Assembly (NCBI GenBank): GCA_021323335.1
Contig: JAJTCN010000001.1
Span: 62,001 to 126,000, forward strand
Length of the DNA: 64,000 nt
Reading direction: 5' to 3'
Source of the DNA: Ramlibacter sp.
GTDB lineage: Bacteria > Pseudomonadota > Gammaproteobacteria > Burkholderiales > Burkholderiaceae_C
The first letter of the stretch is position 1. Each line of letters opens with the position of its first letter. The notes under the pieces were generated by a model. The model searched no databases. It saw only the letters and a program-made list of their open reading frames with translations, and was not told where the DNA came from. The position numbers were made by a program, and so were the translations under genes. Positions 9,303 to 59,118 of the stretch are shown here, in pieces.

Positions 9303-9425
9303 AAGTTGTTGATTTGACAGCTGTTTTTCTCCCTCTGACACTCGCTATCGTGCACTGAACATGCAGTGTCGTGCGCCACGCACTCGCCAGCTTCTGGCGG
9401 ACACAGTGGCGGACAGAACGGGGAG

Positions 9426-35924: not shown

Positions 35925-35925
35925 C

Positions 35926-36165: not shown

Positions 36166-36187
36166 GCCCACGCCGCCAGATTTCCCG

Positions 36188-38734: not shown

Positions 38735-39796
38735 TCAGTAGGCCACGGAAACCTTCTTGTTCCCGTCCATCGCAAGTTCACAAGTTCCCACGCCAACGCA
38801 GTCCCCGGCGAGGCGAGCCTTCTTCCCGTTGCTGTCCTGCGCGGTCACGACAACCTTCGCACCGACGGCAAAGCTCGCGCAGCCTTTTCCGCAGGAAACA
38901 GGCGTCCCGCTGAACACGAGCGCCACGGCTGGATCGTAGTTAATGCGATACCCATACCGTTGCGCGGCCCCGTAAGCGTCACGACCCGACATCTTCGTGG
39001 CGCCCATTAGCTTGGTGCAGTCCGAGGCCGCGGTGCACGCATTCGCGGAGCCGGCGGGGGCGCCCGCGGGCTGTGCCGCGATTGCTTTGATCTTCACCGT
39101 CATCGAAGTGCCCTTGCACTTGAGGGAACTTGATGACGAGTAATGCATGATCGATGCGAAGTCATATGCGGTTTCAGAGTTCGAGCTGGTAAGCGGGTGG
39201 TAGTTAACCCTGTACAGGTCAGGGCAGGTTTTCTCGAGCTCACCGCCATCGATCTCAATCACTGTCTCTTGTTTGGTGTGCTGGTGCTCATGGGCCAAGC
39301 CGATCGCGTGACCGATCTCGTGAGCAGGCGTTCGACCACTCCAGCAGTGGGGCGCGATCTTCAGCGCCTGGACATTGCCCCCGTATCCGACGACAGATGA
39401 ACCGCAACCTGCGCCGGAATCCGTTTCGACCAAGATTCGGCCTTTCTGCTTGTTGTCCTCGACGAAGGTCAATGCGGATACCGCACTCCACATGGCTGCT
39501 GCGCCTTCGAAGATCTTTTTTTGGTCGCTCGTCACGCTGGACGAAAACTCGTAGTAGACAACCCCATTGGGCCACGCCCTTCCGGGGAAAATCGCCTTCG
39601 TGCCGGCGCGCGTCAGCGGAATCAGCACATCGTCGATCTGCAGGTACTCGGTTCCTTTCGAGTCGCGCACCACGGGCGCGCCCTGGGCACGCAACCGCTG
39701 CGCGTCGACCTCGCGCCCCGCGTCGAAGCTGCCGGAAAGTGCAACACTCGTGAAGGTAGATGTGAGTGCGAGAACAAACGACTTCCCAGTAGTCAT
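38735..39796 (-). CDS. secreted astacin-type (M12A) metalloprotease
   Basis: The product is about 353 residues. A signal peptide MTTGKSFVLALTSTFTSVAL is followed by a pro-region. The catalytic domain carries the zinc site HEIGHAIGLAHEHQH (HExxHxxGxxHE, about residue 155) and the Met-turn SIMHYSS (about 215), which together define astacins. A C-terminal domain of about 70 residues with paired Cys (VSCGKGCASF, GVGTCELAMDG) may bind a ligand. AAGGAG five bases before the ATG at 39796 sets the start; the GTG at 39802 is less likely. It is exported and degrades proteins outside the cell. It is divergent from the hydrolase operon. Confidence 0.88.
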   Translation of the reverse strand: MTTGKSFVLALTSTFTSVALSGSFDAGREVDAQRLRAQGAPVVRDSKGTEYLQIDDVLIPLTRAGTKAIFPGRAWPNGVVYYEFSSSVTSDQKKIFEGAAAMWSAVSALTFVEDNKQKGRILVETDSGAGCGSSVVGYGGNVQALKIAPHCWSGRTPAHEIGHAIGLAHEHQHTKQETVIEIDGGELEKTCPDLYRVNYHPLTSSNSETAYDFASIMHYSSSSSLKCKGTSMTVKIKAIAAQPAGAPAGSANACTAASDCTKLMGATKMSGRDAYGAAQRYGYRINYDPAVALVFSGTPVSCGKGCASFAVGAKVVVTAQDSNGKKARLAGDCVGVGTCELAMDGNKKVSVAY

Positions 39797-40428
39797 GTTC
39801 ACTCCTTCGTTAAGTCACAACACGAAAGCAAAGCGTTGGCCCCCCAGCCATCGTGTTTGGCCGGCCCGGCCGTCGTAGCTGGCCTGCGGGGGCCGGACTC
39901 ACCATCGCCCGCGCCGCGTGCCAGCGCTTCATCGGCCCGACGATGTAGCCGCGACCATTGTGCGAACCCGCCCCGCCACGCGATCGAGAAAATGCGCACT
40001 GCGATGTCGCACCGCTGCGTGATGTCGGCGTCGCGTGTAGTGACTGCCGCGAGTTTTCCATTGAACCAGGTGGCATCTACGCAGCATGCCGGCTCGCTGC
40101 GCAGCTCCATTGCGCGCCGACTCGAGATGCTCCACGGCACCTCCTGCGAGTCTCAGTGCAGGGTAGCCGAGCGAAAGACATCACGCATCGTCTAATTGGA
40201 TGAGGCTTACTCGAAAGCCGGTGAAGCAGGTGACCCGGCGTGAGAGTCAGGCGAGGTGATTCGCCGCAAGTGCATCGCGGTCCAGCGGGAAATGCTCGCC
40301 AACGACACCGCCGTAGTTGGATGCATGGGTCCTGTCAACATTGACAGGTGTTCCGCCGCGTACCGGGTAAACCAGAGTGACAGATGATTCTCAAGGGGAG
40401 AGGCTCTGCCTTCCGAAGGAGTGTCGTC
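39797..40428. other. 632-bp divergent regulatory region
   Basis: The region separates the astacin gene from the hydrolase operon. It contains the lux-box-like dyad at 40331-40348 and the AAGGAG of the leader at 40416-40421. An open minus-strand frame (39799-40140, 113 codons) overlaps the astacin start and has no ribosome site; I do not call it. The rest shows no repeat. Confidence 0.5.
40331..40348. promoter_or_regulatory. perfect 18-bp dyad, lux-box-like operator
   Basis: CCTGTCAA, two bases, TTGACAGG is an exact inverted repeat with the size and CTG...CAG ends of LuxR-type (lux or cep box) operators. It lies about 80 bases upstream of the leader ORF start. A -10-like GTAAAC at about 40369 would put the dyad near -40, the usual place for activation by such regulators. 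No luxR or luxI gene is in the window. Confidence 0.5.
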
Positions 40429-40488
40429 ATGCAGCACTCGCTGACCCGAGTCGATGTCTTGGAGCTTCGTGAGGTCCCTTCCCGGTGA
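40429..40488 (+). CDS. 19-residue leader peptide, coupled to the GH75-like gene
   Basis: The short frame MQHSLTRVDVLELREVPSR has one of the better ribosome sites in the window (AAGGAG seven bases before the ATG). Its TGA overlaps the GTG start of the next gene in GTGA. The downstream gene has no good ribosome site of its own, so the leader probably delivers ribosomes to it. It is too short to be found by ordinary gene callers. Confidence 0.5.
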   Translation: MQHSLTRVDVLELREVPSR

Positions 40489-41453
40489 GAAAGTTAATCG
40501 CCAGCTCCCTCGTTGCCGTGCACCTTTCGGTAGTGGGCGGTGGGAGGGCCCCGGCGTGCGGGCTGGACGGCTCCTTCGTTCACTCCGACTCCGACAAAAC
40601 AGTGATACGCGTAGCGAAGACCGGCACGCCTTCGCTCTTCTTTGAGGCCGACCTCGATGTCAACACCGACGGCAGTTCTCGCTCGTACCACCCTCACGAC
40701 CCCCGCGGCAGTAGCCTTGCTCTAAACAACATAGCGAATGCGATCGAACGGATCTTCGACGCGTCTGGCACCGACGTCACCTGCTCGCCGCGCAAGGGCC
40801 CGTGCTTCCAGCGCTTTATCTCCACATTCGAGGCCGCACGCGATTCCGACTGGGTCCCCACGGGACATCCCCGTATCACGACCGACGGAATGATTCCATG
40901 GCAGAAGCAGGGTGGCCGCCTCAAGCCCTGCCTGATCACGTCCGGCCCGCATGGCGGCTACTTCGTTTCGCAAACTTCGCTGATCGTCGACCGCAGCAAA
41001 GCCGAGTGCGACCAGGCGCGCTACCTCGACAGCCTCGCCTTCAATGCGGTCGTGCTGCCCAAGTACGCCAAGTGGTCGTCGCAACAGCGCGTGCTGGCCG
41101 AGGGCGACCTCGTGGCAGTGCGCAACCCCCTTAACCGCGAGCTGGCGTTCGCGGTGGTGGGGGACCGGGGCAACCCAAATAAGCTCGGCGAAGGCACGAT
41201 TCGGCTCGCCGCTCAACTGAGCCGCAAGCTGATTGCCGGCAATGAGACATATGCCGAGGTGAAGGCGCTGCAGCTGGACGTGAGCCACGTCGTCGCGTTC
41301 CCGCAGACCGACTTGCGCAAGAGCCTCGGTGCGTTCACCCAGGTGGACATCGACAGGCTTGGGCGCGATGCATTTGAAGAATGGGGCGGTGAAGCGCGGC
41401 TCGCCGCTTGTGCGCGTCTCGGCAAAAAGAAGCGAACACGAGTCGCTGGCTGA
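40485..41453 (+). CDS. GH75-like chitosanase, secreted
   Basis: The product is 322 residues with a signal peptide (MRKLIASSLVAVHLSVVGGG, Cys nearby at 25). The mature part has LFFEADLDVNTDGSSRSYHP and later the block FAVVGDRGNPNKLGEGTIRL (about 222-241). This block resembles the V-G-D-x-G...K-x-G-E-G-S/T core of glycoside hydrolase family 75, whose Asp is catalytic. GH75 enzymes hydrolyse chitosan, the polymer of some fungal walls. The start is a GTG inside the leader overlap. It is the first large gene of the operon. Family assignment is moderate. Confidence 0.6.
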   Translation: MRKLIASSLVAVHLSVVGGGRAPACGLDGSFVHSDSDKTVIRVAKTGTPSLFFEADLDVNTDGSSRSYHPHDPRGSSLALNNIANAIERIFDASGTDVTCSPRKGPCFQRFISTFEAARDSDWVPTGHPRITTDGMIPWQKQGGRLKPCLITSGPHGGYFVSQTSLIVDRSKAECDQARYLDSLAFNAVVLPKYAKWSSQQRVLAEGDLVAVRNPLNRELAFAVVGDRGNPNKLGEGTIRLAAQLSRKLIAGNETYAEVKALQLDVSHVVAFPQTDLRKSLGAFTQVDIDRLGRDAFEEWGGEARLAACARLGKKKRTRVAG

Positions 41454-41482
41454 TGAAGCTGAAATCCAGAAAGGAAAAGGAC

Positions 41483-42082
41483 ATGGAACTTAAGGCAGAT
41501 GAGGTCGCGCGCAAGGGCTTTGAGGTATTCGGCACGGCGCCCCCGACACAGGACGAGTTGGACGACGCCACGAGAATTCTCGCGGCCGCGCCGATAACGA
41601 AGGATCCGCTGGTGGTCGCGCGCTACTTTGAGAACCTGCCCGATGTGAACAAGGAGAAGCAGGCTTACAACGCCGAGTGGCCCGAGCGAGCCAACCCGGT
41701 GATCGTTGCCTTTTTCCTCCAGGCGACCAATTACGGTTCACCCAACGGCGATGACACGCCATGGTGCGCCGCGTTCATGAACTGGTGCCTCATGCGGGCA
41801 GGCAAGCCGCGGACGAAGAGCGCGAGCTCGGGCAGCTTCCGCTGCTTTGCCCTGCCTGCGACAAGCCCGCATCAAGTCGGCGACATCGCAGTCTTCAAGA
41901 AACGCGGCTACGACGAGCCGTGCAGTGGTAAGGGCCACGTCGCGTTTTGGCTTGCGGAGTCAGGCGACTGGGTGACCGTCCTCGGAGGCAACCAGGGCGA
42001 CCGGGTGAAGGTGAGCAAGTACCCGGCGCGTGAAGCGGTGGCCGGCGACGTGCCCTGGCTCATGGCCGTCCGACGCAACTGA
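41483..42082 (+). CDS. CHAP/TIGR02594-like peptidoglycan amidase
   Basis: The product is about 199 residues. TPWCAAFMNWCLMRAG (about 93-108) supplies the catalytic Cys and KGHVAFWLAESGD (about 151-163) the His of CHAP/NlpC-P60-type cysteine peptidases, and LGGNQGDRVKVSKYP is the common third block. These enzymes cut peptidoglycan cross-bridges. There is no signal peptide, so export would need another route or the protein acts inside. The ATG at 41483 has AAAGGAAAAGG before it; the alternative ATG at 41453 overlaps the preceding stop by one base. Confidence 0.75.
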   Translation: MELKADEVARKGFEVFGTAPPTQDELDDATRILAAAPITKDPLVVARYFENLPDVNKEKQAYNAEWPERANPVIVAFFLQATNYGSPNGDDTPWCAAFMNWCLMRAGKPRTKSASSGSFRCFALPATSPHQVGDIAVFKKRGYDEPCSGKGHVAFWLAESGDWVTVLGGNQGDRVKVSKYPAREAVAGDVPWLMAVRRN

Positions 42083-42181
42083 TACGGTCGGAGCGAGACG
42101 CGCCCGGAAGCAAGCTCGAAAGTACCCGCGCCAGGTGTGAAGGAATCGCACCGGTGTGCAAGAAGAATGACGGAGGAAAGC

Positions 42182-45100
42182 ATGTCCGAAAAAGAAGCGA
42201 ATGATGTCGCTGGCGTGGCGATGCCCGTACTGCCCCCCCTCGAAGCGCATTACAGGCGGATTCTTGAGGCGCTTGACGGCGCGAAGCCATCTCGCCGCAC
42301 GCTGCTGGCGGGCCTCGGCGCCAGTGCGGTGGGCTTGCCGCTCGTGGGCGGCGCAGCGCGTGCGGCCAGCCGCTTCCGCGTCCTAGAAGGCGATGGCCAT
42401 GTCCGCATAGACATCGGCGACGCCCCCGCGTGGGAGCTGGACACCAAATGGTTCGACGGGCGACCGGTGTTGCGCGTGCAATCGCGCCCCGATGCGCTGC
42501 ACATCAAGCTGACTGGCGCCTTGTTTCCCGGCACAAGCCTGCCCGCAAACATCGAGGTCCGCGCCGTACGGCGCGGATCCAGCTGGCCCGCGAAATTCAA
42601 CTTGCCGGGACTCGGCTTCGAAGCTTCCGTGCGGCTGGAGCTCTGGCTGCTCGGCACGGAGGCGGCCAGAGCCCCCTTTCGCGTGACCGGCTTCGGGTTG
42701 CACGCAACTCCCGACCTTTCTTTCGCGCGCATCGCGGGTTTTGGCTCGCTTGGCGCCGATTGGACCTTCCGGGCGGATGCCCTCGAAAAGGGCGACTGCC
42801 TCATGCAGGGGGCCTGCGACCCGATCGAGGAGTGGCGGTTTGCGTTGGTGCCGCAGGGCGAACAGGCCGCCGCGCGCACGATGTTCTGGACGCGTTATTC
42901 GGATGCTCCTTCGCACGCATGCGAAGTCGACGGCTGCCGCCTCACGCTCGCAGCACACACTCCTGCTTTCCTCGTTGCCTCCCGGACCGGGGCAGAACTT
43001 CTACTAAAAGCTGAGCCGCAAGCCGCAGGCGCCGGCGTGCTGCGCTGGGCCGGCCGCTCGAGCATCGAGCTGCCGGCAGCCAGCGCATCCGTCGTCCACA
43101 GTTTCGGTACGGGTTGCCACGACTGGACTGCCCGCGCTTCGCTTGATACCGCCGCGCGCTGGACCCCTTTTGAAGGCGGCGCCGCGCGCTTCGTCGCTGC
43201 GCCGGGGGCGCCGGTGCTGCTGGCGTCGGCCGCATCGGGCGCACCTCCCGGCGGCGTGCCCAGCCCAGCATGCGTGGCGCTAGCCGAGCGGTTTGTTGTG
43301 GCCGTGCACCAGTGCGACTTTGCCGTTTTCGTGCGGCGCGACAAAAATCCGTTGTGGCCAAGGGACGCCGCGACGGCCTTGCCGCAGCCGAGTCGCGAAC
43401 AACTGCCGGACCTGCTCCAGTTCACCACGCGCGACATCGCCCTCGATTGCTATGACCTGCACGTGCGCCGAGCCGCGGACAGCCTATTTTGTACGATCCG
43501 CTTTCGCAACGTGCAGCTGAAGAACGACTTGCGCGGCTGGTACCTCGTGGGGCGCGCGACGGACACCGAGCTGCCGTACGTGGAGTTCGACTTCGGCTCG
43601 CAGCACATCAGGGAAGAGGCGATCTACTTCTCCGACTGGTGCCAAGCGTGCAACGCCTCGGTGGCCGACGACATGCCGTTGCCAGAAGAGGTTGCCGCCA
43701 TCGTTCTCGATGAGATGCCTGCCGCGAGCCGGCCTGCCTGGGCGCCAGCGTGGGACAAACGCCCCGGTAGACAGAGCTTTCGCGAGTATGTCGACGTGCT
43801 ACTTGCGCATCCGAACTTCGCCGCGTTCAGGAAATCCGCGTCGGCGAAAGGGGCGCCCGCGGCGCGGTGCGGTTCGATGTCGACACCCGCTTATCAGCAA
43901 GCCGGCGCGACGCGGCTTCTCTTCAAGCTCACGCCCGGCCACAAGCTGCCGCTCGGGCTGGCGGCCATGCTCGACTGGGACGACGCATCGAAGCGCCGTC
44001 ACGGCGTTGCGCTCCTGACGTCGGTGTTCAGCGAGCGTTCTGCGAAGCGGGGCGAGCTGCACCTCGAAGATCGCAGCTTGGACATGCGGATTTCGGACCC
44101 GATGAGCATTGCCTCCGATAAGAAGGTTGGTGTTGCTTACCCGCAGGAGTGGGCCACACGCATCGAAGCGCCCGCACTGCTGGTGGTAAACCCGGTCCCC
44201 GGCATCGATGGAGGGTTTCCGCAATGGAGCCGGTCAAAACCCGCGCAGGACTTCACGGAGCGCGGGTTCCGCGTCGCCGAACTCTGGAGCGTGCGCATGC
44301 AGCGCATCGGCGTGCGCGCTCTCTTCTCCGATAAGGTCAGGCGCGAAGCGGACGGCACAGTGAGGCCGTTCGACGTGCCGAAGCCATATCACCCTACGTT
44401 TGCAGGGCAAAACGACTTTCGCGCTTCGTATGATGCGCGCGACCTGCACGAGTTGGTCTGTCTGACTGGTGTGTACGGTTACGGGGCGCTTTGCGGCAGC
44501 GACCAAGTGCAGGGCTGCGGACCGCTCAAAAGCCCTTCGGTGAATGAGCGCGACGAGCAAGACCCCGCGCAGAAATTCAAAGCGGGCGAGTTCATGCCCA
44601 AGCCGATGGATGCGGACCTGCTGCTGGTATCCAGCCTCGGCGCGAGCTTCAAGTACCGCGGTGAATGGGCTCCGCCGGCCAGCAAGGACAGCACCGGTGC
44701 GCTGACGGTCAAGCACTACGACCACCGAGTGCAGCTAGGACGGGACACGTTCGCACGCATCGAATACAAGGGTTTCCTGTTCCCGCTGGGGCAGCCGGCA
44801 GTGCTGGTGAAGCTGACCGACCGGCGCTTCTGCCTCGAAGGAAAGCGCTGGGTTGCGCGCCTCGTACAGCGCTTCTTTATCCACGTCCCAGCGTTCACTC
44901 GCGCGTTCCCCGGCACTGGCCAGCCGCACGAGCGGCTGTGGGGGCACATCCAGACCGGCATGGAGACGTTCACGACGCCAGATTTGGAGGAACCCACGCA
45001 GAGCGAGATCGTCCGCGGGATCGGCATCGGCGCGTTCTGGCCGCGCGTCCGGGGCGAGGTCGGCGCGAACGAGGTGCAGGACGTCCTCTTCGACTATTTC

Positions 45101-48100
45101 GACGAAACCACCCTAACGAAGTACACGGGCCCGCTAATCTTCGTGGACAACAACGTTGCCCACAGGACGTCGGAACTCGTCAAAGTAGTGAACTACTGGC
45201 GCGCTGCCACCGTGAGAGGCATTGCCCTGCTGCAGCGGGCGTGGCCGCCAGGAACGCAGCGGCAGCCGCGCCATTTCGCGGGCGTCACCTCCGCCAAGCT
45301 GCCCTACTTGCCGGGCGAGCGCGGGGAGAACTCCGATATCGAGACCTCGCAGATCCTACTTGGCGTTGCTGTGCCCGGCGACGATGCCTACAACGACGCG
45401 GCCGTGACGGACGCGTCGTTGTTGCGCGTGACGGCGCGCATGGAGGCGCAGGACCAGCCGCCGTTCTACCCGGTGCGCCGGCGCGCCGAGGTCACGTCGA
45501 CGCAACTCGCGGTGCTCACGGGCAACCACGCCGCGCGCTTCCTGCTCGAGTTTGATCCGGTCTACTTGCGCCACGGGCTGGCTGCCGACTACAACGCGGC
45601 CTCGATCTTCGGACGTTTTGCGCTGCAGAGCCCGAAGATGAACTTCGGCGACGACACGTCACGTTCGGGCGGCTTCGCGAGCCCGAGCGCCTCGATTGTG
45701 TGGATGTCCAAGGTGCGCGGCCCCGTCGGCGGCGCCGCAGACCAGCTTGCCACCATTGATCCGCAGCCCCGACCTGTGGCGCTGGTCAATGCCAGGGTGC
45801 TGTCGAAGGGCGCCTTGCACGACCTGGCGCGCCGGCGCAAACGCCTTCGCATGCTCGCGGCCGACGAGCCGGCCCACAGCGACGATTTCGACCCGAAGGA
45901 ATATTTCGCGCAGGCGCTTGGCGACGCGAAGCTGCTCGGAGTGGTGCGGCTGGTAGACGTGCTTGAAGTGCTGCTGCTCGCCACCGGCACGCGCATCCCG
46001 ACCATCAACAAGCAGACGCTCTACGACGTCGCGCTGCCGGCGCTGCGCGCCATCGTCGATGTCCTCAAGAAGGCCGATGGCAAAGTCACCGATTTGCTCA
46101 AGGCGGCCGGCGGTGACAGCATGCAGGACAAGGCCGCGGAGCGCCTGCGGCCGCACTGGGTGCGTGTTTCGTCAGCGGTCGCCACGGCCGAAGCGCTGGT
46201 TGCGCAGTCGGCGCCCGACCCGGGAGCGATCATCAGTGCCAGCAACGAAATCGGCTCGGCCTGCGACCGTTTCGCCGCCGCAGTGCGCGAGCTGGTGGAC
46301 AACCCGACTGTCCTCTTGCCGGATGCGCTGCGCGAGTTCATCGCCCAGGCGGACAGCGCCTTTGAGCAGTTGAAGAAACTCATTCCGCCCACAGCCATTA
46401 AGGAGGCCGTGCAAAACGTCGCCGGGCAGATCTTACGGGATAAGCTGCGCACCACGCTGCAGTCGATCGTGGACGACCTGCAAGGGCGCGCAGCCTATGT
46501 AAGCGTTCGCGAAAGCCTGGTGCGCGTGCTCGGAATCGTGGACGAGCTGCTCGGGATGGCGCAGGACGAGCAGCAGATGGCGCAGCGCCTGCTCGATGCG
46601 TTGCGAAGCGAGCTCTTCGCGCGCCTCGAGGCGGTGGTGCTCGAGCTGGCTGGGCAGCTCGATTCGCTGGCGCTGATCTCCGGGGACGCCGCTTGCGACA
46701 ACGATTTCACGACGCCGCTCACGGGGTTCGTCAAGGCTAACGCGGCGGCGCTTGCCGCAAAGACGAAGGACAGCGGCGACCGCTGCATCGCAGTGGCCAA
46801 TGCGATCGAAGACACGTTCGGCGCCATCCAAGCTGCAAACGCGGCGGCGGAGCCCGCGCTGCGCGCGGCGCGCCACTCGGCCATGGCGTTGCAGAACGTG
46901 CTGAACCTCGAGGCTGACGGTCTGTCGCACATTCAGGCCAAGCTTCGCCATGTGCAGGCGTGGCGCGGCCCGTGCGACATCGAAGGAAACAAGGAGGCAT
47001 TGGGGGCCGTGATTGGCGTCGTCGAGCACTTCGTGCAGGCGCCCGAGCGCGCCATGAAGTGCCTTCGTCACGTGCAGGAGATCGCCAAGGAGTTGCCCGG
47101 CGAATACGTTGCGCTGGCCACGGTGGTGGTCCGAAACATAGACCCGGACGTCGTCGCGGAATGCGGCAAGGTGCTCGCCAAATGGAAAGGTTTCATGCCG
47201 ACTGATGCGCTCAAGGGCATCATCGGCGAAGCGGCGGATCATGTTGCATTGCTTGGGAACCGCGTCGCCGAGTTGTACACGTTCGCGCACTCTGTCGAGG
47301 CAGTTCGGCTTGAACTGAAAAAGGCCGTCGTGTCCGGCGTCGCCGCCGCCATTCAGGCAGCGAGGGCCCGGCTTCAAACCGCCGAGCAAACGTTGACCAA
47401 TGCAGTGGACGACACTCTCGCGCGGGCGGGGGTTTACGTGCTGGCGCTGGAAGACGCCGTGGCCGCCGCTCAGATGCTCACGGCGGCGATGCGCACCTTC
47501 TCGCCGGAAGCGGTGGAAGCGGCGGCGCGCACGGCGATCGAGGCCAAGCTCCGCGCGGTGCGGCAGCAGGTGGAGGCCACCTTACGAGGCGCGGTCCAGG
47601 CTCAGATGCGCGTGGCGCGGGACCGGTTGTGCGCCGCATTGCAAGCTCCGGCAGCGGGTGCGACGCAGCCCGCGATTGTCTTGGCGTTGGACAAGGCGAT
47701 TGCCGCCAGCTCGGCCTATCTGTCGAGGGAAGCGCTCGGTGCCCTCCAGGACGCGCGGGATGCGGCCACTGGCTGCACGTCACTCGAGATTCCGCAGATA
47801 GTCGCCCCGTTCCAGCGCGCGTACGATTTGCTGTCGAAGACGATCGCCAGCGGTGACATGGGCAAGCTCGTCGACCTTGAGAAGGTCATCGAGGAAATCA
47901 TCGCGCAGCTGGGTATTCCGACGCGCATCCGCCTTGACTACGATTGGAATACGACCGTCACTGAAACGCCAAAGGGCAGTGGCGCGATCTTTGAGCCGCT
48001 CGGCGAACGCAGGCTCATCATTAAGTCGGTCATCGAGGTGAGCCTTTCCGGCGGCAAGCCGAGCGTATCGCTCGAAGCAAAGCTCGACCCGTTCGCGATC

Positions 48101-51100
48101 CACCTGTTCGGCAAGACCGGTGCGGCCAACTTCCTCTCGATCGAATTCGATTCGCTTCTGCTGAAGGCTGAGCCCGGCCAGGCGCTGGACTGCAAGACCG
48201 ACGTGACCCTGGTAAAGCCGGGAGCGGCTCTCGGCTTCGTGCAGCGCCTGAGCGCGATTTTCGGGGGCCGTTCTGGCTTCTACTTGTTGCCGGGCCTGCG
48301 CGGGATCGAGGTGGGCTACAAGTATTCGAAGCCCTACGACGTGTTGGGCGGCTTCGTCATTCAGAACCTAGACTTCTCCATTGGCGCTAGCCTGCCGTTT
48401 GACAATGCACCGGTGCGCACGACGCTTAAACTCGCCGAGAAGGAAAAGCCGTTCCTGATTTCGGCGGGGATCTATGGCGGAGGCGGTTTCCTCGCAGTGC
48501 GCACGCGCGCCGACACGCTTGAGCTTCTCGAGGCGTCGTTCGAATACGGCGCCGTTACCGGCTTTGGTTTCGGGCCCGTCACGGGTTCGGGCCGCATCAC
48601 GGCCGGCATCTACATCCGCATGGGCGGGCGTAACCCGGCGGTCGAAGGCTTCTTCTGCGCTGCGGGCGAGGCCAACGTCGCGGGGCTGATCGACGTTGCG
48701 GCGATGCTCCGCGTGTTTATCAAGTTCAACCCAAGTTCCGGCGAAACGGCCGGGGGCGCGGAGTTCACGTTCAAGTTCTCGCTGGGCATCATCGACTACG
48801 AGTATTCAGCGGATGTGGCGTACGCCAAAGCCGGCGATGGCGGCGGAGGGGGTGGCGCCCAAGCGGCACTCGCGAACGAGCGGCCGTTGATGCTGGCCGT
48901 AGGACCGTCGGGCACCGTATCCGACGCGCCTGGGCCGCTGCACACGCTCTTAGGCTCGAACGATACCGTCGACCCAGCAACGTGGGGACCGCATCGCGGC
49001 CTCTTGCAATGGGCCGCATGGCGCAGGTACTGGGCCGCGTTTCTGCCGACGCGGCGCCCGGCGCGTCCGGCCTGGATGACGGTGTGCCGGCCCGCCGAGG
49101 GCGGGCCGAGGTCGAAGCTCGACGAGACGGCCTTCGAGAACACGAGCAAAAAGCAGCTGGAGATGGTGCGCTGGCTCGTCGTGCCGTGGGGAGTCGATGG
49201 CGGCAAGTTAAAGGCGTCGCTGCGCGCGACGCCGACCGTGACCGACGCCAAGTGCGGTGCGCGCCGGAACTGGCCGGAGCTAGTCGCAGCGTCCGGCATC
49301 GCCACGGTTGCCTTCGGACCTTCCAGCAGCGCCTCCTCGCCCGTCGACCTGGCCGCAGCGTATCGAGCCCAGCTCGATGCGATGGGCCTTACCATTGAGC
49401 AGGCCGGCGCGCTGTGGCGCGCGGCCTTCCCGGACCGCTTGCCCACGCCGACGAAAGAGCCGTCGCGCGTGCGCAGCGCCCTCGCTACAGAGGCGCTGAG
49501 CACGCGCGAGATATCTAACGTGACGACCTTGAGAGTCGGCGAACTGTTCGCGGACGCGCTCGGCAACCTGGATGGCGATGCGCCCGGGCGCCAAAGGCTC
49601 TTCGTACTGCCTTCGACCCCCTCGGCCGACGTGGTGCGTGGGCTCGACGGGCTGGCACGCATGTACCCCTCGGTCGCCAGCCGCAGGGGGGAGGCCGAGT
49701 CGCCGCTTTCGACTGAAGCGCTGCAGCACATCAGGGGCGGTCCGCGGGTCACCGACCTGCTGGCGCAGTTGCTGCTCGACCGGCAGGGGTCTTTCCAGCC
49801 CCAACTGAAGGGGCTGCCACTCCAACCGGCCGCGACCGAGGAAGCCGATGCGCGACGCGCGGACAATTTCCATAAGCGGCTTGCAGGGGTCGCCGCGAAT
49901 CCGTGGCTGATGAAGGCCCTGGGTCTGGTGATCGAGGTGCACGTCAACGTGGCGGCCACGGGGGGCGAGCCGCCATGGGCGATGCTGACGAAATGGGGTC
50001 CGGCCGTGCAGCCCCGGCACATGCAGAAGACGCACCTCGCCAACGGGTTCGCCGCGCGCCACGAGGGGGACACCACCTTGTATCGCACCTCGGGTGTGCT
50101 CGACGTGTCTTACACGGGCGCGCATGGCCGCTTCGGCCTCTCGCAGCTGGACATCGACCGTACCCCACACCGCTTGGTGCAGACGGCGATTTCATGGCGC
50201 AACGCGGTGATCACCGGAACGCCGCCGCGCGACATCACGGCGCCCGTGCAACCGCAGGAGAGTGTCGGGTTGTCTCTCTTCAAATTCAAGGACCCCGACT
50301 TCAGAAACCTCACCGCGGCTAAGGTCGCCGAGGTCGAGGACATCTACCTCCACAACCTTGTCATCGGGCTGCGGCCGGACATCCAGGAACTGGTGCCCGA
50401 ACAGGACCCGGCTGGTGCGCGTGTGAAGGCTTGGACGTCGCTCACCGCGCGGCGCATAAAACGCGTGAGACTGAAGGGCCGCGACATCACTGACTGGTTC
50501 ACGAATATCCTCGGGCACGTGGACGAGAATTTCCTGGTCGAAGTGCAGCGTCGCCAAAACCCCGGCGACGCGCCCAAGACGGAAGCCGAACTGATGCGCT
50601 GGGACACTTGGGTGCTGGGCGTACCGCGCCCTGACTCCGAAGGCGCTCCGCTCGCGGACCTGCCGAAGGACACGCCCCGCCAATCCCCGGGGCCCGGCTC
50701 CGACCTCAAGATCGAATACGAGGCGCTTCCCGGCGCAACGGCGCAGCGCTTCGGACACGGCTACCGCGTCGGCGTGCGGCTCGCGATGGCAGATGGCAAC
50801 AGCATCGCAATCGACGAGGCCGAGGCTAGGCTCTACCACCACAACGCCGCCGGGCCGTCGCACTCCCTGGGCGACGAGAGCGCAAACGAGAAGGAGGAGG
50901 GCTACGCGCCTTTCCTGCGCTACGAACCGATCCAGCCGCCCGCCGTCCTGATCGAGGGCCTATCCCGGCACAACGAATTGCTGGCTGAGCGCGCGCACCG
51001 GGCCGTGGTCACGCTCGGCGAGAAGACGCGCTGCCGCCGCGTGCTGGTGCCGCCGCGCTGCGCGAGCCTTGACCTCGCGATACGGCATGGTGTGTTTGAC

Positions 51101-53569
51101 GACCCTAGATTCGCGCAGTCCGCGCCCGCCGGTGCGTTCGGCCATGCGATGCTCACGCCGGAGGGCGACTTCCCCGCGTTCAACTACGCGGCGTACGGCA
51201 TCGGCGACTCGAAGCGCAACACCAGCGAGCGCTACTTCCGCCGGCATGCGGGCGGCGTGCAGCCGCCAAAAATCCCGTACTACCCGGACCCATGGGCGCG
51301 GCGCGCGATCATCGGCTTCTACCGCGAAGGCGACGACCAGCTGATGTATGTCGACCACTTCGACTACTACGGAGAAGGCGCCGCGTGGCCGTATGCGCGT
51401 GAGCTCGTCATCGAGATCGTGCCGGTAGAGTCCGTACCCAACCCCTCGCGCTCTCGAGGTTTCGATGTCGAGCGCGCGGACGGCCGCCTCATCGTGCGCG
51501 TCGCGCCCGGCACGCATCTCAAGCTGCGGACATGGCACGAGATCGACGTCGACATGCTTAACCAGTCCGGCATAGTGGACCAAATCGTGCAGGCGGCCTG
51601 CGATCCGTCGACGGGCGCGGCGATTCGGCGGGGCCTACGCTGCACGACGCAAGAACCGCGCGAACTTCGAGCGCGTGTCATTGAAAGGCTATCGAACTGG
51701 CACGCGCGACGCGAGAACTTGGCCACGCCGCCGCGGCCCGCGGGCCAGCCGTCCGCGCTCGTGAACTTCGCATCGTTCTGGATGCTGAATCCGCTGCAGG
51801 AAATGGACGTGGTCCACGCCACGGCCTTGCCGGCCTATGCGCCCACACTCGTCGACAGCACAAAGCGTGAGGTGGTTGCGCCGCAGGTGGCGCATTCGCC
51901 GAGCGTGACGGCCGGTGTGGAGGAGCCCTTCACCGTGACCCGGTTCGTGAACCTGTCGACGGCGTACTTCCGCGGCCACGTCCGCTTGGACCGCGCCACC
52001 ACCCGCAACATCGACGCGCAGGCCACTTGGCGCGAGAACGGAATGCGCGGTGTGCCAGCGGCGGGCAAGCGCGTGACGCGTGTCGAGAAGCGACAGGGCT
52101 TGCTCTTCCAGTTGCGCGACATCGCCCCGGTTGCGCGCGACGCCACGGGCTTCCCTGCCGACGTGCCGCTGCCGCCTGAACTGCCGCCTACGCAGTTCCT
52201 TCAGGACGTCGGGGCCTCCCTGCCCCGGAGGCCCGACATCCGGCTCGACTGCGGCAGGTCGGAGAACGCCGCTGACTGCCGTCCGGTAGCTACACCCTAC
52301 GACTTCGGCGATCCTCGCGCACGTGTGATCGAAGTCGAATTGCATGCCTTGGCGCGGCACGGCGTCGAGTTCCGAGACAGCGCCAGCCATCCGCAGCGGC
52401 ACGTCGCCAAGTCGAAGCCGCAGCGTGTCGTCGTCGCTGCCACGGCCCGGCCTGAGCCGCCCAAGGTCGAATATGTCGTTCCCCTCATTCACGCCAAGGA
52501 CGGTACGGAAGGCGACAACGTTGTGCACACGCGCGAGGGGGGCTGGTTCCGCGTATGGCTCGGTGACGAGTGGTATTCATCGGGCAACGGTGAGCTGCTG
52601 GCGATCGTCTGCTGGGACTCAAACCTGCTGGACCCGCTGGAGCGGCGGCTGCAGCTCACGCGTAGGCGCGAAACAGCCAGCCAGTTCGCAGTGCCGCACA
52701 AGGCGATCGAGCCGATGGTGACGCGCTGGGGGTTGGACCCGTTGCTCGGCGAGCCGATCGAGTTTGGCAACATGCCGGCTTCGGCGCTGCGCAACCGTAT
52801 CGTCAGCCGCGCCAGGCTCGCGGCGTCGGCGGCCACGAAGGACGAGGCGCTGGAAGCGGACCTGCATCACCTGCTGGACATTCACTCGTTCGAGCCGCAG
52901 TACGACCTCCTCCACCTGCCCGATGCGCCGCCCCGACCTGCGGGCCCGGCCGACACCACAGCGGTCCTCGCGCTGTACCGGCCGAACCTCGATCCGGAGT
53001 CCGGCCGCTACTACGCGGACATCCAGATCGATCCCGGCTACGCACGCGACCCGTTTGTGCGGCTGGCGCTCGCGCGCTGGCAGCCGCACGCGCTGCGCGA
53101 CGCGAAGCTCGATCTTCGGATGTCCGCCGTCGTCGCCACCGAGTTCGTCCAGCTGATGCCGGGACGCTCGGTGTCGGTGACTCCGGTGCGCAGCACGAAG
53201 GCCAAGCACCGGGGGTTCAAGGTGGCCGTCGCCGGCGGCCTGCTCGATCCGGCGGCCTCGGCGCAGTCGCAGTTGCGGCTGCACGTGGAAAAGCACCACG
53301 GCGACCGCGCCGGCGGCACGTGGATTCCCATGGGCCACCAAGCGCGGCCCGCAGTCGCGGCCGGCGTATGCGAAGCGCAGTTCGACATCCCCGACGATCG
53401 CGACGCGCGCTACTCGGTCGTGATCGAGGAGTACCAGGTCCTTCCAGCGAGCCCGTACATGGACCCCGCGCTGGACGCGCGCGGCGACAAGCGCTTCGAG
53501 CGGCTCGTCTACTTCGACCGCCTTGCACTCGGCGGCGGCGCAGCGCCGTTCGAGCGCAGTACCGTATGA
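42182..53569 (+). CDS. giant Tat-exported protein of unknown function (3795 residues)
   Basis: The gene is 11.4 kb. A twin-arginine signal lies at residues 37-61 (SRRTLLAGLGASAVGLPLVG, then ARAA), behind an unusually long leader. The N-terminal third is mixed alpha/beta and rich in aromatics (for example RIEYKGFLFPLGQPAVLVKL, about 860). About residues 1290-1890 form long Ala-rich helices, probably coiled coil. A beta-rich block (about 1919-2215) follows, and a GDGGGGGG linker at about 2218-2226 joins it to the C-terminal 1560 residues, again beta-rich. I recognise no catalytic or binding domain. GGAGG precedes the ATG at 42182. It lies between two cell-wall hydrolase-like genes. A structural or delivery role is only inferred. 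Confidence 0.85.
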   Translation: MSEKEANDVAGVAMPVLPPLEAHYRRILEALDGAKPSRRTLLAGLGASAVGLPLVGGAARAASRFRVLEGDGHVRIDIGDAPAWELDTKWFDGRPVLRVQSRPDALHIKLTGALFPGTSLPANIEVRAVRRGSSWPAKFNLPGLGFEASVRLELWLLGTEAARAPFRVTGFGLHATPDLSFARIAGFGSLGADWTFRADALEKGDCLMQGACDPIEEWRFALVPQGEQAAARTMFWTRYSDAPSHACEVDGCRLTLAAHTPAFLVASRTGAELLLKAEPQAAGAGVLRWAGRSSIELPAASASVVHSFGTGCHDWTARASLDTAARWTPFEGGAARFVAAPGAPVLLASAASGAPPGGVPSPACVALAERFVVAVHQCDFAVFVRRDKNPLWPRDAATALPQPSREQLPDLLQFTTRDIALDCYDLHVRRAADSLFCTIRFRNVQLKNDLRGWYLVGRATDTELPYVEFDFGSQHIREEAIYFSDWCQACNASVADDMPLPEEVAAIVLDEMPAASRPAWAPAWDKRPGRQSFREYVDVLLAHPNFAAFRKSASAKGAPAARCGSMSTPAYQQAGATRLLFKLTPGHKLPLGLAAMLDWDDASKRRHGVALLTSVFSERSAKRGELHLEDRSLDMRISDPMSIASDKKVGVAYPQEWATRIEAPALLVVNPVPGIDGGFPQWSRSKPAQDFTERGFRVAELWSVRMQRIGVRALFSDKVRREADGTVRPFDVPKPYHPTFAGQNDFRASYDARDLHELVCLTGVYGYGALCGSDQVQGCGPLKSPSVNERDEQDPAQKFKAGEFMPKPMDADLLLVSSLGASFKYRGEWAPPASKDSTGALTVKHYDHRVQLGRDTFARIEYKGFLFPLGQPAVLVKLTDRRFCLEGKRWVARLVQRFFIHVPAFTRAFPGTGQPHERLWGHIQTGMETFTTPDLEEPTQSEIVRGIGIGAFWPRVRGEVGANEVQDVLFDYFDETTLTKYTGPLIFVDNNVAHRTSELVKVVNYWRAATVRGIALLQRAWPPGTQRQPRHFAGVTSAKLPYLPGERGENSDIETSQILLGVAVPGDDAYNDAAVTDASLLRVTARMEAQDQPPFYPVRRRAEVTSTQLAVLTGNHAARFLLEFDPVYLRHGLAADYNAASIFGRFALQSPKMNFGDDTSRSGGFASPSASIVWMSKVRGPVGGAADQLATIDPQPRPVALVNARVLSKGALHDLARRRKRLRMLAADEPAHSDDFDPKEYFAQALGDAKLLGVVRLVDVLEVLLLATGTRIPTINKQTLYDVALPALRAIVDVLKKADGKVTDLLKAAGGDSMQDKAAERLRPHWVRVSSAVATAEALVAQSAPDPGAIISASNEIGSACDRFAAAVRELVDNPTVLLPDALREFIAQADSAFEQLKKLIPPTAIKEAVQNVAGQILRDKLRTTLQSIVDDLQGRAAYVSVRESLVRVLGIVDELLGMAQDEQQMAQRLLDALRSELFARLEAVVLELAGQLDSLALISGDAACDNDFTTPLTGFVKANAAALAAKTKDSGDRCIAVANAIEDTFGAIQAANAAAEPALRAARHSAMALQNVLNLEADGLSHIQAKLRHVQAWRGPCDIEGNKEALGAVIGVVEHFVQAPERAMKCLRHVQEIAKELPGEYVALATVVVRNIDPDVVAECGKVLAKWKGFMPTDALKGIIGEAADHVALLGNRVAELYTFAHSVEAVRLELKKAVVSGVAAAIQAARARLQTAEQTLTNAVDDTLARAGVYVLALEDAVAAAQMLTAAMRTFSPEAVEAAARTAIEAKLRAVRQQVEATLRGAVQAQMRVARDRLCAALQAPAAGATQPAIVLALDKAIAASSAYLSREALGALQDARDAATGCTSLEIPQIVAPFQRAYDLLSKTIASGDMGKLVDLEKVIEEIIAQLGIPTRIRLDYDWNTTVTETPKGSGAIFEPLGERRLIIKSVIEVSLSGGKPSVSLEAKLDPFAIHLFGKTGAANFLSIEFDSLLLKAEPGQALDCKTDVTLVKPGAALGFVQRLSAIFGGRSGFYLLPGLRGIEVGYKYSKPYDVLGGFVIQNLDFSIGASLPFDNAPVRTTLKLAEKEKPFLISAGIYGGGGFLAVRTRADTLELLEASFEYGAVTGFGFGPVTGSGRITAGIYIRMGGRNPAVEGFFCAAGEANVAGLIDVAAMLRVFIKFNPSSGETAGGAEFTFKFSLGIIDYEYSADVAYAKAGDGGGGGGAQAALANERPLMLAVGPSGTVSDAPGPLHTLLGSNDTVDPATWGPHRGLLQWAAWRRYWAAFLPTRRPARPAWMTVCRPAEGGPRSKLDETAFENTSKKQLEMVRWLVVPWGVDGGKLKASLRATPTVTDAKCGARRNWPELVAASGIATVAFGPSSSASSPVDLAAAYRAQLDAMGLTIEQAGALWRAAFPDRLPTPTKEPSRVRSALATEALSTREISNVTTLRVGELFADALGNLDGDAPGRQRLFVLPSTPSADVVRGLDGLARMYPSVASRRGEAESPLSTEALQHIRGGPRVTDLLAQLLLDRQGSFQPQLKGLPLQPAATEEADARRADNFHKRLAGVAANPWLMKALGLVIEVHVNVAATGGEPPWAMLTKWGPAVQPRHMQKTHLANGFAARHEGDTTLYRTSGVLDVSYTGAHGRFGLSQLDIDRTPHRLVQTAISWRNAVITGTPPRDITAPVQPQESVGLSLFKFKDPDFRNLTAAKVAEVEDIYLHNLVIGLRPDIQELVPEQDPAGARVKAWTSLTARRIKRVRLKGRDITDWFTNILGHVDENFLVEVQRRQNPGDAPKTEAELMRWDTWVLGVPRPDSEGAPLADLPKDTPRQSPGPGSDLKIEYEALPGATAQRFGHGYRVGVRLAMADGNSIAIDEAEARLYHHNAAGPSHSLGDESANEKEEGYAPFLRYEPIQPPAVLIEGLSRHNELLAERAHRAVVTLGEKTRCRRVLVPPRCASLDLAIRHGVFDDPRFAQSAPAGAFGHAMLTPEGDFPAFNYAAYGIGDSKRNTSERYFRRHAGGVQPPKIPYYPDPWARRAIIGFYREGDDQLMYVDHFDYYGEGAAWPYARELVIEIVPVESVPNPSRSRGFDVERADGRLIVRVAPGTHLKLRTWHEIDVDMLNQSGIVDQIVQAACDPSTGAAIRRGLRCTTQEPRELRARVIERLSNWHARRENLATPPRPAGQPSALVNFASFWMLNPLQEMDVVHATALPAYAPTLVDSTKREVVAPQVAHSPSVTAGVEEPFTVTRFVNLSTAYFRGHVRLDRATTRNIDAQATWRENGMRGVPAAGKRVTRVEKRQGLLFQLRDIAPVARDATGFPADVPLPPELPPTQFLQDVGASLPRRPDIRLDCGRSENAADCRPVATPYDFGDPRARVIEVELHALARHGVEFRDSASHPQRHVAKSKPQRVVVAATARPEPPKVEYVVPLIHAKDGTEGDNVVHTREGGWFRVWLGDEWYSSGNGELLAIVCWDSNLLDPLERRLQLTRRRETASQFAVPHKAIEPMVTRWGLDPLLGEPIEFGNMPASALRNRIVSRARLAASAATKDEALEADLHHLLDIHSFEPQYDLLHLPDAPPRPAGPADTTAVLALYRPNLDPESGRYYADIQIDPGYARDPFVRLALARWQPHALRDAKLDLRMSAVVATEFVQLMPGRSVSVTPVRSTKAKHRGFKVAVAGGLLDPAASAQSQLRLHVEKHHGDRAGGTWIPMGHQARPAVAAGVCEAQFDIPDDRDARYSVVIEEYQVLPASPYMDPALDARGDKRFERLVYFDRLALGGGAAPFERSTV

Positions 53570-53602
53570 ACACTCGTGCCAACTTCAATCAGGAGAAAAG
53601 AC

Positions 53603-54493
53603 ATGGCAACCGCAAAGTCCCGCAATCGTACTGCCGACAAGCGCGCAGCCGCCAAATCGCCTGCGAGCAAATCGCTGAAGACGGTCGCGCGCAAGGCGGC
53701 GGTCCCCGTGAAGCGCAAGGTCGCGACCGCACCTGCATCCGACCTCATGGCGCGCAGCGCCGTGCAGCTGCGCGCGTTCGTGGAAGAAGGCTTGCTCGCC
53801 GGGCCGGCGCGCCGCGTGCGGCTGGCCGTGCATGAGGGCCCAGACTCGTTCGAACTTGACTGGGACAGCAGCTGGGAAATTGCGCCTCTTGATACTGACC
53901 CGCAGCGCCGCGCACGTATCAAGGGGTACTGGGCCGACTTTAAGGCCGTGACGACCGCCGTCGGGGACGCCGACGACAAGGCGAAGAAGATCCGCCGTCT
54001 TGCGCTCTACCTTTCTGGCATGGAGAGCACCTTCGGCCTACTGCGCGATCAGCAAGGCAACGGCCCCGCAAAAGGCTTGCTCCAGATCCAGGCCAACAAG
54101 CTCAGGGACATCATCAGGCAGGCACGCGTCATGGACAATGGCGGCGTCGCCGGGCGCAAGGACCGGGTGAAACTACTGCTGGCGACGCAGTCGCACTACA
54201 CTGACGAGAACACGATGCACACCGCGGCGATGGCCTTGAAGGACAACGCGGCGGCCTACCCTGCCGACTCACCGTTCTTGAAGCTCGCACGGGACAACGA
54301 CGAGTTCGCGTGCATGCTCATGCGACTACAGTTGATGCGTGCTGAGGGTCTGCCGGGCGACCATGACAGCTGCTACAAGTGGTGGGTGTCCGACTGGCAC
54401 AGCCCGACCAACCTGCCGAACGACGCTGAGAAGGAATTCAAAGCGCGCGCCACTATTGGCGATGCGGACCTGGTTGCATTGGCGTTGAACTAG
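53603..54493 (+). CDS. lysozyme-like protein with basic N-terminal tail
   Basis: The product is 296 residues. Residues 1-55 are a disordered, Lys/Arg/Ala-rich tail reminiscent of histone-like or nucleic-acid-binding tails. The C-terminal part (about 125-290) is helical. LALYLSGMESTFGLLRDQQG, then GPAKGLLQIQANKLRD, looks like a transglycosylase or baseplate lysozyme active-site region with a single Glu after a helix and a G-L-x-Q-I follow-up. There is no signal peptide. AGGAGAAAAGAC precedes the ATG. It starts 33 bases after the giant gene and is the last gene of the operon. The fold is moderately supported. Confidence 0.6.
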   Translation: MATAKSRNRTADKRAAAKSPASKSLKTVARKAAVPVKRKVATAPASDLMARSAVQLRAFVEEGLLAGPARRVRLAVHEGPDSFELDWDSSWEIAPLDTDPQRRARIKGYWADFKAVTTAVGDADDKAKKIRRLALYLSGMESTFGLLRDQQGNGPAKGLLQIQANKLRDIIRQARVMDNGGVAGRKDRVKLLLATQSHYTDENTMHTAAMALKDNAAAYPADSPFLKLARDNDEFACMLMRLQLMRAEGLPGDHDSCYKWWVSDWHSPTNLPNDAEKEFKARATIGDADLVALALN

Positions 54494-59056: not shown

Positions 59057-59118
59057 GTTGCTAAGTCTGCCGCGCAAACGTCCGGGGGACAGATGGCCGC
59101 AATTGGACAGGAGATGTC

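What the first reader, a model, noticed from the sequence alone, without database searches (positions are those of the whole stretch)
40331..54493. Operon of wall-degrading enzymes around a 3795-residue Tat-exported protein
A GH75-like chitosanase, a CHAP-like amidase, a giant unassigned exported protein and a lysozyme-like protein are encoded in one 14 kb operon, with a divergent astacin protease. Each hydrolase targets a different barrier: chitosan, peptide cross-links, glycan, protein. The giant protein has a valid Tat signal and long helical and beta-rich parts but no domain I know. The CHAP-like and lysozyme-like proteins have no signal peptide, so they may be cargo. The set looks like an undescribed secreted predation or antifungal system. 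The grouping and signals are seen in the sequence; the joint role is inferred.
Basis: partly seen in the sequence, partly recalled or inferred. Interest (0 to 1): 0.8.

Follow-up and report, generated by a model that had tools for sequence, protein, structure and literature searches.

The report
Giant Tat-targeted protein with hydrolase genes
A 3,795-residue bacterial protein that carries an export signal turns out to be a fusion of two giant proteins from a widespread, apparently undescribed gene pair; in the lineages that carry the export signal, genes for protein-cutting or wall-cutting enzymes lie close by in some but not most cases.

Summary
The operon is real: GH75-like protein, CHAP protein, 3,795-aa giant, a small downstream protein, and a divergent astacin. 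The giant matches nothing in Pfam, NCBIfam, PHROGs, PADLOC or PDB sequences and has no convincing fold match. It is a fusion of two proteins, A and B, which are adjacent same-strand genes in 109 of 109 testable loci in several phyla. By my rule 30 of 112 A proteins carry a twin-arginine (Tat) signal, so Tat export is not universal in the family. The predation reading is partly supported. The window's hydrolase set is not conserved, but secreted HExxH proteins lie within 4 kb of 6 of 30 Tat loci against 0 of 81 others (crude rules, not ancestry-corrected), and the proteases are of unrelated families. The closest relative (L113) has a trypsin-like and a lysozyme-M23 gene directly after B. Best reading: a cytosolically folded two-part giant, exported here by Tat with B as passenger, with accessory hydrolases serving its release or its target. 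At 412 kDa it would far exceed the 150 kDa reported for Tat cargo. The function of A-B itself is unknown.

The parts
38735..39802 (-). Astacin (M12A) metalloprotease with HEIGHAIGLAHEH and SIMHY motifs and a signal-like N-terminus (by eye; my crude rule missed it); divergent from the operon
   Evidence: Pfam Astacin 1.9e-27; sequence
40485..41453 (+). GH75-like chitosanase-type protein with a signal-like N-terminus (by eye)
   Evidence: phmmer to V-Csn 7tvm 1.8e-6, D148 and E157 equivalents conserved; no Pfam/NCBIfam match
41453..42082 (+). CHAP / TIGR02594 putative peptidoglycan hydrolase, no signal seen; a candidate ATG overlaps the stop of the GH75-like gene (TGATG); another ATG lies at 41483
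   Evidence: Pfam CHAP 2e-7, TIGR02594 72.6 bits against cut-off 70.55, phage baseplate hub/tail lysozyme PHROG 1.1e-18, overlap
42182..53569 (+). Giant fused A-B protein, 3,795 aa, 412 kDa (longest ORF begins at 42137)
   Evidence: no match in Pfam, NCBIfam, PHROGs, PADLOC, PDB sequences up to E 1
42182..42365 (+). N-terminal region with the Tat signal (SRRTLL...ARA)
43424..45769 (+). A core, first conserved block (about aa 430-1210 of the 3,810-aa ORF)
   Evidence: alignment of 64 A proteins, tblastn
45884..47803 (+). Poorly conserved segment of A, coiled-coil/helical by profile likeness, of variable length between forms
47804..48871 (+). Most conserved A block: C-terminal long-strand beta domain (GGGGFL...EASFEYG...)
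   Evidence: alignments A1 and A11, predicted structure of a relative, strand amphipathy
49163..53566 (+). B part of the fusion (begins MVRWLVVPWGVDGGKLKASL, like the start of separate B proteins MAKQTIVWTVLPNGR...LRVSIV)
   Evidence: tblastn to separate B genes, B N-termini, junction
53603..54493 (+). Downstream protein, no signal seen, Lys/Ala/Arg-rich basic N-terminal tail; possible lysozyme/transglycosylase-type enzyme (unproven); longest ORF begins 53576
   Evidence: phrog_3108 1.9e-6; no Pfam, PDB, phage or plasmid match

Best explanation
Shown: the giant is a single-chain fusion of two proteins, A and B, that elsewhere are encoded by adjacent genes, and it carries a Tat signal that only part of the family has. 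Inferred: A and B fold together in the cytosol into one mostly beta-rich assembly (A with a long-strand amphipathic sheet, B a string of Ig-like sandwiches). In this lineage the folded assembly is taken through the inner membrane by Tat, with B as a passenger (elsewhere as a hitchhiker, here covalently). Inferred, less sure: the signal-less peptidoglycan hydrolases of the operon open the wall so that a >400 kDa complex can leave the cell, and the exported protease and chitosanase-like enzyme process it or act with it on its target. In logic, not in ancestry, it resembles Tc-toxin operons with embedded lytic release genes. The function of A-B itself is not known; most members have no recognised export signal and so appear to work, or at least to start, in the cytosol.
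For: Fusion: tblastn of the giant hits two adjacent genes in 12 of 13 plasmid loci fetched (in L002 B is itself split, and L009's B was found only by profile). A and B are on the same strand in 109 of 109 loci, with a gap of at most 60 nt, overlaps included, in 105 (window fused, L126 without a B found, L096 broken: set aside). Tat: 30 of 112 A proteins. B has a Tat-like start in 1 and a Sec-like start in 4 of 109 by a crude rule. A gene annotated tatA starts 49 nt after B's stop in S. meliloti L003. Hydrolases: closest relative L113 has A, B, a trypsin-like gene and a signal-less lysozyme-M23 gene in a row, the last with lysozyme E/D/T and M23 H..D/HLH residues by eye; L095 has an M23 gene upstream. 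Secreted HExxH neighbours: 6 of 30 Tat loci against 0 of 81 others (Fisher p 2.6e-4). Protease families differ: astacin (window, L014), M10 (L099, L100), M35 (L004, L123), reprolysin (L124). Unchosen Pfam scan of 115 Tat-locus neighbours: peptidase families S9, M23 and M10 in two proteins each, one other family also in two. Structures.
Against: About two thirds of Tat loci have no recognised hydrolase in the scans made, so it is not obligatory. No ORF with a transmembrane-like stretch (best 19-residue mean 1.31) was seen in the gaps beside the operon, so no holin or spanin. The enrichment test is not corrected for ancestry or for three tests; two of the six are sister Bradyrhizobium rows, and L089's protein has no Pfam family. 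Without the secretion condition the HExxH excess is weak (11 of 30 against 13 of 81, p 0.035), and some of those 11 look like chance motifs. The trypsin-like protein of L113 has Ser at the catalytic His position and may be inactive. The proteases of L099 and L124, like the window's astacin, lie on the opposite strand. Reported Tat cargo reaches 150 kDa (PMC6708511), far below 412 kDa. Six signal-less A proteins have a Sec-like start by a crude rule, so 'cytosolic' is not sure for them. The models are of middling confidence (pLDDT 76.7 and 66.7).
Confidence: 0.38

Rival explanations
1. One reading: a secreted predation or antifungal set. The giant is a carrier or scaffold and the hydrolases are weapons that break chitosan, peptide cross-links, glycan and protein of a prey.
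For: Several hydrolase types around one Tat-signal-bearing giant; unrelated proteases and wall hydrolases beside some Tat-signal relatives; a GH75-like enzyme has no obvious target in the producer's own wall (inference).
Against: The set itself is not conserved: none of 98 and 14 further loci shares the window's hydrolases. 82 of 112 A proteins have no Tat signal by my rule. B's C-terminus is conserved (consensus), so there is no variable toxin tip as in polymorphic toxins. No library named a receptor-binding or toxin domain.
Confidence: 0.22
2. The A-B gene is an autonomous accessory gene on a mobile island, and the neighbouring hydrolases are unrelated insertions.
For: The window is an integrase-bearing, lower-GC island with restriction and defence genes. 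In 91 loci no third gene family is in more than 8 loci, and that one looks like generic ABC ATPases. Pooled neighbour Pfam lists look random. Most Tat loci show no secreted HExxH protein (24 of 30).
Against: The contrast between Tat loci and others and the contiguous A, B, trypsin-like, lysozyme-M23 run in the closest relative.
Confidence: 0.3
3. A-B is a lipid- or hydrophobe-binding carrier: the long-strand sheet of A forms a groove or cavity, as in LptD, apoB or MTP.
For: Foldseek's weak best matches for A include LptD, microsomal triglyceride transfer protein and apoB-100; 10 of 13 long strands alternate hydrophobic and polar sides.
Against: In the 50 matches shown TM-scores by target are at most 0.29 with rmsd above 15 A, and porins score alike, so this may only reflect long antiparallel strands. 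An outer-membrane barrel is unlikely for a Tat substrate and for Streptomyces members (inference).
Confidence: 0.08

Closest known systems
Tc toxin complexes and their release by type 10 secretion systems (Yersinia entomophaga; PMC10847048, passages seen)
   Same: Giant assembly folded in the cytoplasm; lytic release genes embedded in some Tc operons (abstract passage). The Serratia type 10 system of the same paper releases chitinolytic enzymes; here a GH75-like gene is in the operon.
   Different: No Tc family is matched: Pfam finds nothing in the giant up to E 1 and nothing above cut-off in six separate A/B proteins. Here there is a Tat signal, and no holin or spanin was seen.
Tat hitchhiker export (PaoABC; PMC4273604, abstract in a search listing)
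   Same: There, subunits without a signal travel with a signal-bearing partner; B would do so here.
   Different: Size: 412 kDa here against up to 150 kDa reported (PMC6708511, passage). Export of A-B is not shown.
GH75 chitosanase V-Csn (PMC9485262, passages seen)
   Same: Sequence match over 92 residues, and both residues mutated in V-Csn (D148, E157) conserved.
   Different: The position aligned with D34 is Asn in a very weak part of the alignment; much of the N-terminal half is not aligned; activity untested.
Phage-type lysozyme plus M23 endolysin-like proteins
   Same: L113's second gene after B has Pfam Phage_lysozyme and Peptidase_M23.
   Different: It sits in the A-B gene row of a bacterium; the window's own downstream protein was not found related to it by phmmer.

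Membership tests
Tc toxin (TcA/TcB/TcC) | Recognisable Tc/SpvB/VRP1/Rhs domains (names recalled) | tested here: not met
   Pfam up to E 1: nothing in the giant; nothing above cut-off in three A and three B proteins
Type 10 secretion system | Endolysin together with holin and spanins | tested here: not met
   CHAP present, but no ORF with a membrane-like segment in the gaps of 39.3-55.4 kb; the rest of the genome was not searched for them
Tat substrate | Twin-arginine motif, uncharged hydrophobic stretch, AxA-type end | tested here: met
   SRRTLLAGLGASAVGLPLVGGAARA; 30 of 112 A proteins pass the same home-made rule (the AxA end was judged by eye)
Tat substrate | Actual Tat-dependent export | not testable with these tools
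   Needs an export assay
GH75 chitosanase | Sequence homology with the catalytic Asp and Glu | tested here: met
   phmmer 1.8e-6 to V-Csn; D148 and E157 equivalents conserved; no Pfam match
GH75 chitosanase | Second acidic pair in the cleft (D34, D36 of V-Csn) | tested here: inconclusive
   A 0.4-bit alignment shows Asn and Asp there
Lysozyme/transglycosylase (gene 53603-54493) | Profile match to a lysozyme-superfamily family | tested here: not met
   No Pfam or NCBIfam match at a meaningful score, no PDB match
Polymorphic toxin | Variable C-terminal toxin domain with immunity gene | tested here: not met
   B's C-terminal consensus is conserved; no third gene family common to the loci
Known anti-phage defence protein | Match to a PADLOC model | tested here: not met
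   None for the giant and four A/B proteins up to E 1
Phage protein | Homologues in phage or viral collections | tested here: not met
   None in 50,697 phage records; none confirmed in two pattern scans of viral contigs

The most novel reading that the evidence does not exclude
A-B is an unrecognised class of giant bacterial assembly that folds in the cytosol, works there in most species, and in one set of lineages has become a Tat cargo of about 400 kDa or more that leaves the cell with the help of exchangeable wall hydrolases and proteases. It would be far larger than the Tat cargo reported so far and a new kind of secreted machine.
Probability: 0.22. Interest if true: 0.85.

Novelty: categorically new. 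Interest (0 to 1): 0.6.

Why it matters
A protein pair of about 2,300 to 5,200 residues in total, present in several phyla and on both plasmids and chromosomes, matched no named family in the libraries searched. A natural Tat-signal-bearing chain of 412 kDa makes the question of Tat's cargo size limit directly testable with a real candidate substrate. The switch between signal-bearing and signal-less forms in one family, and the unequal protease and wall-hydrolase company they keep, give a way to work out what such giants do.

Tried and rejected
Outer-membrane porin: rejected as a reading of the A model because TM-scores are low, Tat exports folded proteins, and Streptomyces members have no outer membrane (the rest is general knowledge). 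PDB matches to the A profile (60 of 194 shown) all lie in or around the helical segment and say nothing of function; the two B matches are at E 0.044. Alpha-2-macroglobulin/complement matches to B are generic Ig-like strings without a Pfam match. The viral fold search for A gave nothing convincing. Association with defence genes: seen in the window, in L002 (dpdE-H) and in L078 (SNF2), but A-B itself has no PADLOC match. The first genome scan, with the single protein, found nothing. Two literature searches by description gave nothing on the family (listings only, best-ranked rows); bioRxiv and most closed journals are not held, so novelty rests on these and on the library searches.

The signal rules used are home-made. 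They miss weak signals (the window's own astacin and GH75-like protein), so counts are rough. Of the 82 A proteins without a Tat signal seven cannot be judged (L059, L061, L069, L075, L084, L145 cut at a contig edge; L096 broken). L010 (A in two pieces) and L126 (no B found) are further odd rows. Near-copies from related strains were kept. The candidates were chosen by eye, partly from an output that was cut; one search is the unchosen set (up to two nearest genes on each side of 30 Tat loci, 115 proteins) and prints 25 of 50 families. The pooled sets contain Tat loci too (131 of 133 and 135 of 137 neighbours of 80-1,100 aa were given), so they are not a pure control.
Full report
Observation. 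The giant's best start is the ATG at 42182, five bases behind GGAGG, giving 3,795 aa and 412.1 kDa. All five genes have coding-like codon-position GC. A candidate ATG of the CHAP gene overlaps the stop of the GH75-like gene (TGATG). Pfam names the astacin (1.9e-27) and the CHAP domain (2e-7), and nothing in the giant up to E 1. The GH75-like protein is missed by Pfam and NCBIfam but matches the solved viral chitosanase V-Csn at 1.8e-6. The two V-Csn residues whose mutation cut activity (D148N five-fold, E157Q almost wholly; PMC9485262, passages) fall on conserved D and E of the alignment. The last gene is not shown to be a lysozyme: its only notable match is phrog_3108, of unknown function, at 1.9e-6.

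What the giant is. tblastn of its first 2,954 residues found 14 of 72,556 plasmid records. I fetched 13; the second C. metallidurans record was left out. In 12 of the 13 the giant matches two successive genes, A and B (in L002 B is split once more; in L010 A is in two pieces); in L009 only A is matched by tblastn and B was found by profile. B's start (MAKQTIVWTVLPNGR...LRVSIV in short forms) reappears inside the giant at about 49163 (MVRWLVVPWGVDGGKLKASL). The window therefore carries an A-B fusion. An alignment-based scan of GTDB genomes gave 77 loci. None was found in 50,697 phage records and none was confirmed in two pattern scans of viral contigs. After dropping known duplicates I kept 112 loci. 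Setting aside the window (fused), L126 (no B found) and L096 (broken), A and B lie on the same strand in 109 of 109, within 60 nt or overlapping in 105 (longest-ORF starts). Holders include Pseudomonadota, Actinomycetota, Chlorobiota, Bacteroidota, Ignavibacteriota, Armatimonadota, Acidobacteriota and Planctomycetota, some of them MAGs that may be contaminated.

No known family. The giant has no match up to E 1 in Pfam, NCBIfam, PHROGs, PADLOC or PDB sequences. Three A and three B proteins of other loci have no Pfam match above cut-off. A profile of 49 A sequences finds PDB chains only through its helical segment in the 60 of 194 shown; one of 49 B sequences finds two at E 0.044. A predicted model of a minimal A (Streptomyces L092, 965 aa; pLDDT 76.7, pTM 0.58) is mostly beta and ends in a run of long antiparallel strands; 10 of 13 of these alternate hydrophobic and polar sides with a difference of 2.4 or more. 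Foldseek finds only weak likeness to porins, LptD, apoB and MTP. The model of the window's B (1,199 residues; pLDDT 66.7, pTM 0.53) resembles strings of Ig/FN3 sandwiches, again without a whole-fold match.

Export. 30 of 112 A proteins have a Tat signal by my rule: the window, 15 others longer than 2,200 residues, and 14 shorter ones. The other 82 have none; seven of them cannot be judged because cut or broken, and six have a Sec-like start by a crude rule. In 74 of the 82 the first 45 residues after the first Met are richer in Lys+Arg than the whole proteins (15.5% against 9.4% on average; starts uncertain). On a tree of 110 A domains the label needs 7 changes, at least 4 of them forced by well supported branches, and the window groups with L113 (support 96) inside a clade of 17 (98), 16 of them Tat and one a truncated row (long branches, so deep order is unsure). 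B has a Tat-like start in 1 and a Sec-like start in 4 of 109. If A is exported, B would have to go with it; the fusion here says the two work in one place. A gene annotated tatA starts 49 nt after B's stop in S. meliloti L003; a pattern search saw no other among 112 loci. A review gives Tat cargo up to 150 kDa (PMC6708511, passage); this chain is 412 kDa, and the L113 pair 245 + 170 kDa.

In a first set of 91 loci, gene clustering found no third gene family in more than 8 loci; that one looks like generic ABC ATPases, and the next two were in six Achromobacter loci each (one ABC member is annotated). Pfam on up to two genes each side of 70 loci (131 upstream, 135 downstream, both kinds of loci pooled) gave no family in more than three proteins; the only hydrolase-type family seen twice was Patatin (25 of 105 and 25 of 98 families printed). 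None of 98 loci (E 0.01) or 14 further ones (E 1e-3) had a tblastn match to the window's astacin, GH75, CHAP or downstream protein. So the set is not a conserved system.

Neighbours, for a link in the exported form. The closest relative, L113 (43% identity over 371 residues of the slice), has A, B, a trypsin-like gene and a 462-aa Phage_lysozyme plus Peptidase_M23 gene in a row on one strand. That last protein has no signal and has the expected catalytic residues by eye; the trypsin-like protein has Ser in place of the catalytic His. Other Tat loci have an astacin (L014), M10 (L099, L100), M35 (L004, L123), a reprolysin (L124), an M23 (L095) and a zinc phospholipase C (L004) (candidates chosen by eye). 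With the window that is at least 9 of 30 Tat loci. Counting ORFs within 4 kb that have both HExxH and a Sec-like start gives 6 of 30 Tat loci and 0 of 81 others (Fisher p 2.6e-4); any HExxH gives 11 of 30 and 13 of 81 (p 0.035), some of them probably chance motifs; any Sec-like start 28 of 30 and 56 of 81 (p 0.011) (L096 dropped; not corrected for ancestry or for three tests). phmmer with the hydrolases against 973 neighbours within 6 kb (279 at Tat loci) found, beyond the queries themselves, L095-L113 (M23), L099-L100 and L004-L123, all Tat loci, and one weak trypsin-like hit at a non-Tat locus (L062, 0.0019). An unchosen Pfam scan of 115 neighbours of the 30 Tat loci lists S9, M23 and M10 peptidases in two proteins each, with one other family also in two.

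Reading. The core A-B unit does not need the hydrolases, since most copies show none in the scans made. Where A has a Tat signal, enzymes that cut protein or wall are found nearby more often, and they are not the same enzymes by descent. Two roles fit: helping a giant periplasmic complex out and maturing it, or acting on a target together with it. I lean to the first for the signal-less wall hydrolases (CHAP and perhaps the downstream gene here, lysozyme-M23 in L113), because without a signal they can reach the wall only once the membrane is open or as passengers, as in type 10 release of Tc toxins (PMC10847048, passages). But no holin or spanin was seen beside the operon, so it is not a type 10 system by the tested features. 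Independence of the neighbours remains a serious rival.

Setting. The window is position 62001-126000 of contig C102 of a 4.49 Mb draft genome. GC drops from about 70% to 60% between 8 and 12 kb, where a tyrosine integrase gene lies, and type III restriction, UvrD, PDC-S68 and DrmD genes flank the operon. The giant gene's GC is higher (65-68% in the 2-kb steps from 42 to 54 kb), which suggests a separate origin (inference).

Noticed in passing
window 9366-64000: Integrative or defence island: tyrosine integrase at 9366-10739, DnaB-like 13270-14739, GC shift from about 70% to about 60%.
   Followed up: partly
window 29965-38356: Type III restriction pair (Res-like 29965-33054, Mod 33054-35924, PADLOC MTase_III 1417 bits) and a UvrD helicase.
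   Followed up: no
window 55187-62229: PDC-S68 candidate defence helicase (1390 bits) followed by a DrmD-type SNF2 helicase (PADLOC 899 bits; below the NCBIfam cut-off); no other DISARM gene noticed among the proteins scanned.
   Followed up: no
L003 25886-26053: A gene annotated tatA directly after B on an S. meliloti plasmid: perhaps a dedicated Tat part for the giant.
   Followed up: partly
L002 26915-35316: dpdE-H DNA-modification genes shortly after the A-B genes on an A. vitis plasmid.
   Followed up: no
L078, L086, L087, L090 flanks: In Tat-bearing A-B loci of Chlorobiota, Ignavibacteria and Armatimonadota bins a 315-353 aa secreted-type protein upstream (L086, L087, L090) and a 476-713 aa one downstream (L078, L086, L090) recur (clusters 25 and 24).
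   Followed up: no
L028 2199-2867 and 4017-5969: Extra A-like fragments upstream of a full A-B pair in Achromobacter pulmonis, suggesting duplication and decay.
   Followed up: no
L096 7208-16014: A-B copy broken into many frames in Pseudoxanthomonas sp. NC8.
   Followed up: no
L086/L087, L077: Near-identical A domains in MAGs of different phyla (Chlorobiota and Armatimonadota; Holophagaceae among Burkholderiales): recent transfer or binning error.
   Followed up: no
L095 5135-6091 and window 53603-54493: Two small proteins beside A-B, not related by phmmer, with Lys/Arg-rich tails (C-terminal in L095, N-terminal in the window) and E...G motifs by eye; many signal-less A proteins have basic N-terminal tails too.
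   Followed up: partly
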